64,000 bases of DNA, taken from a virus. Positions 46,850 through 55,738 of this stretch are shown here, one piece after another. The stretch spans positions 124,001 to 188,000 of the IMG/VR virus record IMGVR_UViG_3300025132_007963. One strand, 5' to 3'. Made by a program: the position numbers and the translations under genes. The notes beneath the pieces are model-generated. The model was not told where the DNA came from and searched no databases. It saw only the letters and a program-made list of their open reading frames with translations. Within the stretch, counting starts at the first letter, position 1, and every line of letters begins with the position of its first letter.

Positions 46850-48172
46850 TTATAAGTTTCTCGCAGCGATATCTGCTACTTTTGATCTTTCACCTTTCAT
46901 TAGTGTTATGTGGCCGGTTATATCTTCTTTCTTTAGCTTTTCCACAACGTATGTTAAGCCGTTCGTTGTGGCATCTACATACACATTATCAATTTGTTCT
47001 ATATCTCCAGTTAGAACTATTTTAGTATTTTCTCCAACTCTTGTTAAAACTGTTTTTATCTCATGACGATTCATATTTTGAACTTCATCAATTATTATAA
47101 TGGCATTAGATATAGACCTGCCACGTATGTAAGTCATTGCTTCAACTTCTATTCGACCCTCTTCGATATGCATATCAAGCGTCATTTTATCATTACCAAA
47201 AAGAAATTGTAAGTTATCTTGTATTGGTGCAAGCCATGGAAGCATTTTTTCTTCTAGTGTGCCAGGTAAAAACCCTATGTCTTTTCCAACCGGTTGAATT
47301 GGTTTTGTTACAACAATCTTATTATACACTCTATCGTTTGCTACCTCTCCAAACGTTTGCTGTAGAGCAGAAGCTAGCGCCAATAGTGTTTTACCAGAGC
47401 CGGCTTTACCAATTAGAGAAACAACCGGTACACTAGGGTCCATTAATAGATCTAGAGCAAAAGTTTGTTCTTTGTTTCTAGCTTTAACACCCCAGATTTT
47501 CTTTTTTGAATTGAAGACTTTCTTCAAAGGTTCAGAATAACCTACAAACCTAACCAAACTAGTCTTTTTATCATTTACATTTGAAACAAGCATTACAAAT
47601 TCGTTTGGGTGCAAAGTTATTTCATCTTTTTCTAGAAAGACAGGCACATCATGATATATATTATCTACTATTTGATCATCCACCAAGTGTGACCTGAAGC
47701 CAGTGTAAAGACCAGAGACATCCTCAACTACCTGCTCTAAATTATAATCTTCACAATCCAATCCCAAAGAATCACATTTAACTCTCATATTGATATCGCG
47801 AGATACAACAATCACATTAGTTTTTGGATTGTTGTTTTTCTCTGATAACGCTGTAGCAATTATTTGATTGTCCGGATTTTCCAAGTCCAAGTCGTCTGGA
47901 AGCGCGAAAGGGTCGTAGCTTTTTACAAAGATTAGACCTTTCTTCTCTCCCAAGCTTACCCCCTTTATGAGGTTACCTTTTTCGCGAAGCTTGTCTAGCT
48001 TTCTAATTATATTTCTAGCGTGTACACCGACCGGATCTTGTCTCTTTTTATGCTTATCGATCTCATCTAATACTTTTAGCGGTATAACGATGTTGTTTTG
48101 CTCAAAAGAATCTATGCAATTTGCGTCTGTTAGATACACATTTGTATCTAGAAGGTAAGTTTTTTTTGACAA
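46850..48172 (-). CDS. phoH: PIN-PhoH ATPase
   Basis: The N-terminal 140 residues are a PIN domain (YLLDTNVYL, IIATALSEKN, VVSRDINMR) and the C-terminal part is PhoH with Walker A GKAGSGKT and Walker B IIIDEVQNM, then LTGDIEQID. PIN-PhoH proteins are RNA helicase-ribonucleases in the known bacterial example. The start is TTG (48172), the only candidate with a SD (AGAGG, 6 bases upstream). Common in marine phages. 440 residues, full length. Confidence 0.92.
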   Translation of the reverse strand: MSKKTYLLDTNVYLTDANCIDSFEQNNIVIPLKVLDEIDKHKKRQDPVGVHARNIIRKLDKLREKGNLIKGVSLGEKKGLIFVKSYDPFALPDDLDLENPDNQIIATALSEKNNNPKTNVIVVSRDINMRVKCDSLGLDCEDYNLEQVVEDVSGLYTGFRSHLVDDQIVDNIYHDVPVFLEKDEITLHPNEFVMLVSNVNDKKTSLVRFVGYSEPLKKVFNSKKKIWGVKARNKEQTFALDLLMDPSVPVVSLIGKAGSGKTLLALASALQQTFGEVANDRVYNKIVVTKPIQPVGKDIGFLPGTLEEKMLPWLAPIQDNLQFLFGNDKMTLDMHIEEGRIEVEAMTYIRGRSISNAIIIIDEVQNMNRHEIKTVLTRVGENTKIVLTGDIEQIDNVYVDATTNGLTYVVEKLKKEDITGHITLMKGERSKVADIAARNL

Positions 48173-50346: not shown

Positions 50347-50423
50347 TGGTGGACCCCCACGGACTTGAACCGTGAACCTGCCGGTTATGAGCCGGATGCT
50401 CTAACCTATTGAGCTAGGGGTCC
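50347..50423 (-). tRNA. tRNA with CAU anticodon (probable Ile2, decoding AUA)
   Basis: A 77-base cloverleaf: acceptor GGACCCC pairs with GGGGTCC, D stem GCTC/GAGC, anticodon loop CTCATAA, T arm CACGG-TTCAAGT-CCGTG, discriminator A and encoded CCA. The anticodon stem has four firm pairs plus a mismatch. CAU can be Met or, after lysidine modification, Ile for AUA. The neighbouring TilS-like gene, the C4-G69 and C5-G68 pairs and the TTCAAGT loop favour Ile2. Confidence 0.93.
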
Positions 50424-50439
50424 TAACTCTTATAATATA

Positions 50440-51048
50440 CTATAGATCGATGTATGTTTCAAGTATTTTTTTACGAATTGTTTTGCGAATACCTGGATTG
50501 ATCTTTAAAGCATGAGGAATAATGTTATGTCTTGTATAATTTCTCATATAATTTGTATCTTTGTTGCTTGGATCTTCTATCCATTCTAGGCCTTTACGTT
50601 GTGCATACAGAAGAAATGCTTTTCTCTCGGTAGGTAGAAACGGTCTATAGATATTATTTCTTTTGTATGGTATTAGCTTTGGGTTTCCATGCATAGCTGA
50701 CATTAGCCAAGTTTCAACCACATCGTCTAGGTGGTGACCAGTTACAATAAACTTACTTTTTAAACTCTCTAAGAACCCATACCTCTCATCTCTCCAGAAC
50801 TCTTCAAACGACCTTTTTCCTCTATATCCTTTTACCCCACTAACACAGAGCACAAGCTTGTTTTTTGCAGCGTACTCTTTAACAAATTGCTCAGCTTTAT
50901 TTGAGTGTTGTGTTCCGTGATTAAAAAAAGCAAGATCTACTTTTCTTTTACCTTGCAATAAAAAATGGACAATGCTTATGGAATCTACGCCGCCAGAACA
51001 TGCGACTGTAACCCTTCGGGGTATTTTCCCTAAAATCCGGAGCATCAT
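50440..51048 (-). CDS. tilS: TilS-like tRNA(Ile)-lysidine synthase, catalytic domain only
   Basis: TilS changes the wobble C of tRNA-Ile(CAU) to lysidine so it reads AUA. The PP-loop CSGGVDS is at residues 17-23, GHHLDDVVETWL near residue 100, RPFLPTERKAF, and WIEDPSNKDTNYMRNYTRH near residue 160, the TilS-specific block. 202 residues: the C-terminal domains of the 430-residue E. coli enzyme are missing. SD AGGA is 9 bases before the ATG. It is co-transcribed with a CAU tRNA 17 bases downstream, which should be its substrate. Confidence 0.9.
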   Translation of the reverse strand: MMLRILGKIPRRVTVACSGGVDSISIVHFLLQGKRKVDLAFFNHGTQHSNKAEQFVKEYAAKNKLVLCVSGVKGYRGKRSFEEFWRDERYGFLESLKSKFIVTGHHLDDVVETWLMSAMHGNPKLIPYKRNNIYRPFLPTERKAFLLYAQRKGLEWIEDPSNKDTNYMRNYTRHNIIPHALKINPGIRKTIRKKILETYIDL

Positions 51049-51639: not shown

Positions 51640-52266
51640 CTAGTATGAATCAACTCTAAGATTGATAGTTTCACGAACTTTTACCATTCCATGACCATTA
51701 CACCTGTTGCATGTTTGTTCGAACACGTATCCCTTTTGGTTACACGTAGAACAAGGTATTTGTTGTATTATCATGCCTTTCCTAATAACAACAACCCCCT
51801 GACCTTGACAAGAATGACATATTATTTTATTATTTCCGCCTCTACCTTTACAACTCATACATTTTTTATTACGGTTAAATTGTATTTGTTGGCTTACACC
51901 TTTTTTTATTTGTGATAATGACAATTTAAGTTTAAACGTTATTTCATCATCAGTTTGTTCTTTTAATTTGTTTTTTTTATGCTGTGGTCGACCGGTATTG
52001 AACATTTGACTAAACAAGTCACCAAAGCCAAAATCTGCGAAGGGGTTTCCTCCAAAATCAGGAAAATCTCCAGCATGTTGCGAATATTCATGTTCCTGCC
52101 TTTTTTGTGCTGTGCTTATTTTTGAATACGCTTCATTTAATTCTTTGAACTTTTCTTCGTTGCCACCTTTGTCGGGATGATGTTGTGCGGCTAGTTTTCG
52201 AAAAGCTTTTTTAATCTCTGTGTCGGAGGAGTTCTTACCGACGTTTAATATTTTATATGGATCCAT
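51640..52266 (-). CDS. dnaJ: Short DnaJ: J domain plus zinc-finger domain
   Basis: The J domain fills residues 1-70 with the Hsp70-activating HPD at 30-32 (AAQHHPDKGG), followed by a Gly/Phe-rich linker (FPDFGGNPFADFGFGD). Four CxxCxGxG-type repeats follow: CMSCKGRG, CHSCQGQG, CSTCNQKG and CNRCNGHG, which bind two zincs. The protein stops at 208 residues, so the C-terminal peptide-binding and dimer domains of the 376-residue DnaJ are absent. It probably recruits host DnaK. No SD is visible. Confidence 0.9.
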   Translation of the reverse strand: MDPYKILNVGKNSSDTEIKKAFRKLAAQHHPDKGGNEEKFKELNEAYSKISTAQKRQEHEYSQHAGDFPDFGGNPFADFGFGDLFSQMFNTGRPQHKKNKLKEQTDDEITFKLKLSLSQIKKGVSQQIQFNRNKKCMSCKGRGGNNKIICHSCQGQGVVVIRKGMIIQQIPCSTCNQKGYVFEQTCNRCNGHGMVKVRETINLRVDSY

Positions 52267-54695: not shown

Positions 54696-55076
54696 TTAAC
54701 TTTTTTTACTCTTGTAATTTTCAATCGCAGCTCTAATTGCATCTTCTGCAAGCACAGAACAGTGAATTTTTACAGGAGGCAGGGATAAGTGTTCTGCTAT
54801 GTCTTTATTTTTAATTTTTTGAGCATCTTCTAGTGACCTACCTTTAATCCATTCTGTAACCAAAGATGAGGATGCTATAGCGGAGCCACAACCATAAGTT
54901 TTAAACTTTGCATCTTCTATAAAACCATCATCATTAACCTTTATTTGAAGCTTCATAACGTCACCGCAAGCAGGTGCACCGACAATACCTGTACCAACAT
55001 CATTGGATTCTTTATCTAAAGATCCTACATTTCTAGGATTTTCAAAATGATCTATTATTTGTTTTGAATATGACAT
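54696..55076 (-). CDS. iscU: IscU-type Fe-S cluster scaffold
   Basis: All residues that hold the cluster are present: Cys37 with Asp39 in GAPACGD, Cys63 in TYGCGSAIASSS, and Cys106 in KIHCSVLAEDA. LPPVK (99-103), the HscA-binding motif, is intact. 126 residues is the full length of IscU. Its ATG follows the IscA stop without a SD, so translation is coupled. No IscS is present, so sulfur must come from the host enzyme. Confidence 0.95.
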   Translation of the reverse strand: MSYSKQIIDHFENPRNVGSLDKESNDVGTGIVGAPACGDVMKLQIKVNDDGFIEDAKFKTYGCGSAIASSSLVTEWIKGRSLEDAQKIKNKDIAEHLSLPPVKIHCSVLAEDAIRAAIENYKSKKS

Positions 55077-55079
55077 ATT

Positions 55080-55394
55080 TTATACCGAGAAACTTTCTCC
55101 ACACCCACATGTCCTTCTAGCATTTGGATTTTGAAATTTAAAGCCGGTTTGATTTAACTCGTCTATAAAATCAATTTGAGTACCCATCAAATATAAAAAA
55201 CTTTTGGGATCAACATATATATCAACACCTTGACTTTCTATTACGCGGTCATGATCTTTTTTGCTGTCAAATTCTAACTTATACGTAAAACCAGAACAAC
55301 CACCACCTCTCACTCCTGCACGGATGCCAGTTTCTTTTTTCTTTGAAAGTAAATTTTTTATTCTATTTGCTGCTGTTTCAGTTAAGGTTATCAT
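55080..55394 (-). CDS. iscA: IscA/HesB-type Fe-S carrier
   Basis: Carries the three conserved Cys of A-type carriers: Cys33 in GGGCSGF and Cys96/Cys98 in RTCGCGESF. IDFIDELNQTGFKFQNPNA is also typical. 104 residues, full length. A near-consensus promoter ends 6 bases before the ATG. It stands between the tmRNA and IscU. It should pass Fe-S clusters to client proteins, perhaps phage ones such as the Cas4-like nuclease. Confidence 0.95.
   Translation of the reverse strand: MITLTETAANRIKNLLSKKKETGIRAGVRGGGCSGFTYKLEFDSKKDHDRVIESQGVDIYVDPKSFLYLMGTQIDFIDELNQTGFKFQNPNARRTCGCGESFSV

Positions 55395-55436: not shown

Positions 55437-55738
<302 letters not shown>

What the first reader, a model, noticed from the sequence alone, without database searches (positions are those of the whole stretch)
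50347..51048. Phage-encoded AUA decoding pair: CAU tRNA beside a minimal TilS
A TilS-like enzyme with the diagnostic EDPSNKDTNYMRN block lies 17 bases upstream of a tRNA with anticodon CAU, encoded CCA and C4-G69, C5-G68 pairs, under one promoter. This would give the phage its own lysidine-modified tRNA-Ile2 to read AUA, a frequent codon in this AT-rich genome. The enzyme is only 202 residues, without the C-terminal domains of bacterial TilS, so it may be adapted to the phage tRNA.
Basis: partly seen in the sequence, partly recalled or inferred. Interest (0 to 1): 0.78.

Follow-up and report, generated by a model that had tools for sequence, protein, structure and literature searches.

The report
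Phage TilS–tRNA-Ile2 pair for AUA
A large environmental phage carries, side by side, a tRNA gene for the isoleucine codon AUA and a stripped-down version of the bacterial enzyme that must modify that tRNA; the pairing is conserved in sister phages, and the one-domain enzyme belongs to a large phage-only branch of a known enzyme family.

Summary
Window 50347-50423 (-) is an intact CAU tRNA and 50440-51048 (-) a 202-aa TilS-type protein, 16 nt apart. A classifier trained on bacterial CAU tRNAs assigns the tRNA to the Ile2 (AUA) class by 41 bits, and still by 17 bits with the whole acceptor stem ignored. The protein passes the curated TilS cut-off, keeps all catalytic motifs, and its AlphaFold model (pLDDT 93) best matches Aquifex TilS, but it lacks every C-terminal tRNA-binding domain of bacterial (type I/II) TilS. 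It belongs to a phage clade: 56 IMG/VR contigs, jumbo phages MIJ3/PA5oct and two ~640-kb phages. Bacterial relatives are all >=279 aa, apart from one probable phage contig in a bacterial MAG. In the three nearest records the same tRNA follows tilS by 14-16 nt in conserved synteny, although synonymous sites are saturated. AUA is 41% of the phage's Ile codons. Most likely the phage makes and matures its own lysidine-bearing tRNA-Ile2. Phage tRNA-Ile2 and phage TilS were each reported before; what is new is the one-domain phage clade and the conserved enzyme-substrate gene pair. 'One promoter' and 'adapted to the phage tRNA' are not shown; activity is untested.

The parts
50440..51048 (-). tilS: 202-aa TilS catalytic (PP-loop) domain without C-terminal tRNA-binding domains
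   Evidence: TIGR02432 128.1 bits (cut-off 93.6); PF01171 118.3 bits; PDB 1wy5 E 7.6e-24; AF2 pLDDT 93.4; top fold match Aquifex TilS; no PF09179 or PF11734 in the record
50347..50423 (-). tRNA-Ile2 gene (anticodon CAU, predicted lysidine at C34), CCA encoded
   Evidence: ARAGORN; Rfam; Ile2 class by 41 bits; covariation
50424..50439 (-). 16-nt gap between tilS stop and tRNA; AT-rich, holds -10-like hexamers
50434..50462 (-). promoter-like TTGAAA-17-TATATT overlapping the 3' end of tilS, possible separate promoter for the tRNA (consensus match only)
   Evidence: TATAAT at a similar place in L061 and L062
49690..50337 (-). ClpP-like head maturation protease gene, 9 nt after the tRNA; conserved downstream neighbour in L061-L063
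   Evidence: PHROG phrog_94 E 8.1e-43; synteny

Best explanation
The two genes are a phage-encoded AUA-decoding unit. The phage makes a CAU tRNA of the Ile2 class. The neighbouring one-domain TilS activates C34 with ATP and attaches lysine, giving lysidine-34. Host IleRS then charges the tRNA with Ile and it reads AUA, the second commonest Ile codon of the phage. Making the enzyme with its substrate would prevent a pool of unmodified tRNA-Ile2, which in bacteria is charged with Met and reads AUG. Shown here: gene identity, tRNA class, conserved motifs and fold, missing C-terminal domains, conserved adjacency, purifying selection, AUA frequency. Inferred: catalytic activity, that this tRNA is the substrate, charging by host IleRS, expression, benefit in infection.
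For: tRNA class. TilS identity and fold. Catalytic residues of Aquifex TilS (D36, H133, D137, R205; their roles are from my own knowledge) map to D22, H105, D109 and R173, all invariant in 32 phage-type sequences. Adjacency at 14-16 nt in L061, L062 and L063, where it is the only tRNA on 104-, 127- and 68-kb records, with conserved synteny and dN/dS about 0.08 at saturated dS. Phage tRNA set is Lys-UUU, Leu-UAA, Arg-UCU and this CAU tRNA, which, read as Ile2, decodes AAA, UUA, AGA and AUA, all A-ending and frequent: 52.8, 26.5, 25.0 and 27.8 per 1000. AUA share is at or above composition in the paired phages (0.41, 0.48, 0.49) and below it in most other TilS phages sampled. Unmodified tRNA-Ile2 behaves as tRNA-Met: PMC11938285. 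A vibriophage CAU tRNA carries lysidine: review PMC13191261.
Against: No activity or expression data. All characterised TilS enzymes described in PMC12514573 use at least one C-terminal domain to contact tRNA, so a catalytic-domain-only enzyme might be weak, need a partner, or be less selective. Other TilS phages carry a different tRNA next to tilS (Leu-UAA at +15 in L099) or no tRNA on contigs up to 77.9 kb. T4-like phages carry tRNA-Ile2 and rely on host TilS (no TilS match to a T4-like phage), so a phage TilS is not generally needed.
Confidence: 0.85

Rival explanations
1. The tRNA is an ordinary elongator (or initiator) tRNA-Met and its position beside a TilS gene is coincidence.
For: ARAGORN labels it tRNA-Met from the anticodon alone. 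CAU tRNAs are common in phages: 408 phage records match this tRNA.
Against: Ile2 class by 41 bits, 17 bits without the acceptor stem. C4-G69/C5-G68 and C29-G41 kept while neighbouring pairs covary. The same pair in three related records.
Confidence: 0.04
2. The phage TilS mainly tops up lysidine on host tRNA-Ile2 (or remodels other host CAU tRNAs); the phage tRNA is a secondary substrate.
For: Most of the clade's contigs show no tRNA-Ile2 beside tilS, and several show no tRNA at all. Without C-terminal domains the enzyme may be less selective (inference from PMC12514573).
Against: In the window's own lineage the tRNA is directly beside the gene and is the only tRNA on three related records. 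Most tRNA-less contigs are short fragments.
Confidence: 0.12
3. The pair replaces host tRNA-Ile2 that is cut by tRNA-targeting anti-phage defences or degraded during infection; codon supply is secondary.
For: Phage tRNAs are known to compensate for loss of host tRNAs (Yang 2021, via review PMC13191261).
Against: AUA use is highest in the phages with the tight pair. No defence context was found or tested here. Not exclusive of the main explanation.
Confidence: 0.12
4. The ORF is a decayed N-terminal remnant of a full TilS and is inactive.
For: It lacks CTD1 and CTD2, and no separate C-terminal domain gene was found.
Against: 51 complete ORFs of 186-241 aa in the clade. dN/dS 0.05-0.13. All catalytic motifs invariant. 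Confident complete fold.
Confidence: 0.04

Closest known systems
TilS-like proteins of Pseudomonas jumbo phages vB_PaeM_MIJ3 and PA5oct (Imam et al. 2019, PMC6892783)
   Same: Same ~203-aa catalytic-domain-only TilS, 45-46% identical. Same phage clade. MIJ3 also carries one Ile2-class CAU tRNA (L047/L048), which the paper lists as tRNA-Met.
   Different: There tilS is about 9 kb from the Ile2-class tRNA, with no tRNA within 3 kb. The passages read leave the function unknown and do not mention missing domains or a tRNA partner.
Bacterial type I and type II TilS (E. coli, Geobacillus, Aquifex; PMC12514573)
   Same: Same catalytic domain, motifs and fold.
tRNA-Ile2 genes of T4-like phages (PMC1524935) and lysidine-bearing vibriophage tRNA (Yang et al. 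2021, via PMC13191261)
   Same: Phage-encoded CAU tRNA with Ile2 features that reads AUA after lysidine formation.
   Different: Those phages are thought to use host TilS; here the enzyme is encoded beside the tRNA.
Ralstonia jumbo phage RsoM2USA ORF84 (PMC8504454)
   Same: Phage-encoded tRNA(Ile)-lysidine synthase in a tRNA-rich phage.
   Different: 349 aa as reported, so not the one-domain form. It was not among the tblastn matches to the window protein.

Membership tests
TilS catalytic-domain family (TIGR02432 / PP-loop) | Score above the curated TIGR02432 cut-off | tested here: met
   128.1 bits against 93.6; all 32 members of the phage alignment match the model at E <= 0.001
TilS catalytic-domain family (TIGR02432 / PP-loop) | PP-loop SGGxDS, HHxxD and D-x-S-N...RN..R motifs with catalytic residues | tested here: met
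   S18GGVDS23, H105HLDD109, E158DPSN...R169N..R173; invariant in A2 at the catalytic positions
TilS catalytic-domain family (TIGR02432 / PP-loop) | Fold of the TilS N-terminal domain | tested here: met
   Aquifex TilS 1wy5/2e21/2e89 top matches, TM 0.82-0.83 by query length; next family TtuA-type sulfurtransferases E about 4e-9
TilS catalytic-domain family (TIGR02432 / PP-loop) | Lysidine synthesis on C34 of tRNA-Ile2 | not testable with these tools
   needs biochemistry
Bacterial type I or type II TilS | At least one C-terminal tRNA-binding domain (CTD1, or CTD1 and CTD2) | tested here: not met
   202 aa, aligned only to Aquifex 24-227; no PF09179 or PF11734 in the record; bacterial relatives sampled are >=279 aa except L117
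Other PP-loop tRNA enzymes (TtcA, TtuA, QueC) | Score above their own curated cut-offs | tested here: not met
   TtcA 30.2 of 272, TtuA 21.8 of 450; PHROG QueC family only E 1.6e-4
tRNA-Ile2 | CAU anticodon with C4-G69 and C5-G68 (E. coli TilS identity pairs, PMC12514573) | tested here: met
tRNA-Ile2 | Groups with bacterial tRNA-Ile2 and not with elongator or initiator tRNA-Met | tested here: met
   margin 41.3 bits, 23.7 without 4:69 and 5:68, 16.9 without acceptor
tRNA-Ile2 | Lysidine at position 34 and Ile charging | not testable with these tools
   needs mass spectrometry or acid-gel charging assay

The most novel reading that the evidence does not exclude
The phage clade represents a third type of TilS, catalytic domain only, that picks its substrate from the anticodon arm and body of the tRNA and not from the acceptor stem. 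Acceptor pairs 4:69 and 5:68 are then free to drift in phage tRNA-Ile2. In phages without their own tRNA-Ile2 the enzyme could even convert host CAU tRNAs (tRNA-Met) into AUA readers.
Probability: 0.2. Interest if true: 0.75.

Novelty: new variant of a known kind. Interest (0 to 1): 0.5.

Why it matters
TilS decides whether a CAU tRNA means Ile or Met, and in studied enzymes this choice depends on C-terminal domains that touch the tRNA stems. A widespread phage clade that keeps only the catalytic domain, with its likely substrate encoded next door in one lineage, gives a natural minimal system in which to ask how little is needed for faithful lysidine formation. It also suggests that some phages bring both the tRNA and the modification that sets its meaning, and do not rely on the host for the modification.

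Tried and rejected
Single-sequence scan of viral contigs found no relatives; the alignment-based scan found 56. Elongator/initiator Met and TtcA/TtuA/QueC identities were tested and rejected. A separate gene for the missing C-terminal domains was sought and not found. The host could not be identified: the tmRNA matched phages only at its 3' end, and the one near match in a bacterial genome (L117, Halobacteriovorax MAG) lies beside phage-type ligase and dehydrogenase genes and is probably a phage contig. AUA is not enriched beyond composition in this genome (0.407 against 0.394), so 'codon bias drives it' is only weakly supported. The clustering without acceptor positions did not split eMet from Ile2 at four clusters, so a supervised score was used; its bacterial labels, other than E. 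coli, rest partly on the acceptor pairs. The T4 tRNA-Ile scored Ile2 with a small margin (6.6 bits), partly because its positions were mis-framed by my parser. The primary paper on vibriophage lysidine (Yang 2021) is not held and is cited through a review.

Full report
Setting. The window is bases 124001-188000 of a 192,821-base IMG/VR virus record. The record has 37.4% G+C, four tRNA genes (Lys-UUU, Leu-UAA, Arg-UCU and the CAU tRNA) and a tmRNA. Baseplate wedge, head maturation protease and PhoH genes mark it as a tailed phage. The host is unknown.

The tRNA. ARAGORN and Rfam agree on an intact tRNA at 50347-50423, minus strand. It has encoded CCA, C4-G69, C5-G68, U12-A23, C29-G41, A37, A38 and A73. 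I collected CAU tRNAs from 24 bacterial genomes that carry TilS, with E. coli ileX and metU, which are annotated as Ile and Met, and built position-wise scores for the Ile2, elongator Met and initiator classes. The window tRNA scores Ile2 65.7, elongator Met 24.4, initiator -15.5 bits. The margin is 23.7 bits when 4:69 and 5:68 are left out and 16.9 when the whole acceptor is left out; leave-one-out accuracy is 42/42, 42/42 and 41/42. Caveat: the bacterial class labels, other than E. coli, were assigned by me, partly from those acceptor pairs. The tRNA covaries with relatives at nine pairs, so it is under selection as a tRNA.

The enzyme. The 202-aa ORF passes the curated TilS domain cut-off, matches solved TilS structures by sequence, and its AlphaFold2 model, built from 32 phage-type relatives (pLDDT 93.4, pTM 0.89), finds Aquifex TilS first. 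Aquifex catalytic positions D36, H133, D137 and R205 correspond to D22, H105, D109 and R173, all invariant in the phage alignment; the roles of those residues are from my own knowledge of the literature. The alignment to Aquifex stops at residue 227 of 317, about where the C-terminal domain starts, and no gene for the missing domains (PF09179, PF11734) is in the record.

The clade. An alignment-based scan of viral contigs returned 56 loci, 51 with complete ORFs of 186-241 aa. MIJ3, PA5oct and two phages of 635-642 kb carry the same form. In the same search of about 85,000 bacterial and archaeal species, the 80 best relatives are all 279 aa or longer except one: a 207-aa ORF in a Halobacteriovorax MAG, on a contig with phage-type genes. 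The tree separates 42 phage sequences plus that contig from 34 bacterial ones on a branch with 99% support. It is a quick tree, and the bacterial sample is biased to the nearest relatives. PHROGs has no TilS family that matches.

The pairing. The three nearest viral records (67-69% identical TilS; L062 and L063 are near-identical, so two independent lineages) have the CAU tRNA 14-16 nt after tilS on the same strand, and it is the only tRNA on each record. The neighbouring genes are syntenic: IscU-like upstream (L061), ClpP-like protease, PhoH and glycosyltransferases downstream. Synonymous sites between the window and these relatives are saturated while dN is about 0.24, so the linkage is old. 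Elsewhere in the clade linkage is looser: CAU tRNA at +83 in L076, about +490 in L100/L102, about 9 kb away in MIJ3, or absent from fragments. In some, another tRNA (Leu) follows tilS (L099, L115).

Recognition. Published work states that E. coli TilS uses C4-G69 and C5-G68 as identity pairs, that CTD2 of type I enzymes contacts the acceptor stem, and that type II enzymes lack CTD2 but keep a C-terminal domain (PMC12514573). Of about 14 Ile2-class tRNAs in TilS phages, only six keep both pairs, against 12 of 13 bacterial training sequences. The bacterial figure is inflated by labelling, but the trend fits an enzyme without acceptor-stem contacts. This is inference.

Need. AUA is 27.8 per 1000 codons and 40.7% of Ile codons, close to the 39.4% expected from third-position composition. 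In the tightly paired relatives AUA is 34-37 per 1000 and above expectation; in most other TilS phages sampled it is below expectation. That is two or three lineages and short loci, so a hint only.

Expression. The genes are 16 nt apart and the next gene starts 9 nt after the tRNA, so one transcript is likely. A promoter-like TTGAAA-17-TATATT also lies across the end of tilS, and TATAAT stands 6 nt before the tRNA in L061 and L062. The one-promoter claim is therefore open.

Prior knowledge. Phage tRNA-Ile2 has been recognised since at least 2006 in T4-like phages (PMC1524935), lysidine has been found on a vibriophage tRNA (PMC13191261), and phage TilS was reported in MIJ3 in 2019 with function unknown (PMC6892783) and in RsoM2USA in 2021 (PMC8504454). 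I found no report of the one-domain clade or of the adjacent pair in the open-access library; subscription papers and preprints were not searchable.

Verdict. It is a new variant of a known kind: TilS in chemistry and fold, outside types I and II in architecture, encoded beside its likely substrate.

Noticed in passing
window 55437-55738 (-): Phage-encoded tmRNA (Rfam 124 bits, tag ANNDIEFEDYALAA), so this phage carries ribosome-rescue RNA as well as tRNAs.
   Followed up: partly
window 54696-55394 (-): Two adjacent ORFs that look like IscU (scaffold) and IscA/HesB iron-sulphur proteins, next to the tmRNA; the IscU-like ORF is 83% identical in L061.
   Followed up: partly
L099 (about 10741), L115 (about 5340), L105 (about 10655): In other TilS phages the tRNA directly after tilS is tRNA-Leu (UAA or CAA), not CAU.
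   Followed up: no
L067-L096: A large sub-clade of TilS contigs shows no tRNA on most of the loci fetched; six of these contigs (24-78 kb) were searched whole with Rfam tRNA and had none. The enzyme's substrate there is unknown.
   Followed up: partly
L047, L048 (PA5oct, MIJ3): One of the three CAU tRNAs listed as tRNA-Met in MIJ3 scores as Ile2 by 25 bits, giving MIJ3 TilS a likely substrate.
   Followed up: partly
window 50424-50462; L061 6502-6525; L062 1556-1579: The -10-like TATAAT 6 nt before the tRNA in L061/L062 would place transcription start at or near tRNA base G1, a possible leaderless tRNA.
   Followed up: no
window 46850-48172 and 51640-52266 (-): PhoH-like protein of the long PHROG type (an N-terminal PIN domain is my reading of the sequence) and a DnaJ-like ORF; with the ClpP-like protease these are chaperone/protease-type genes around the pair.
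   Followed up: no
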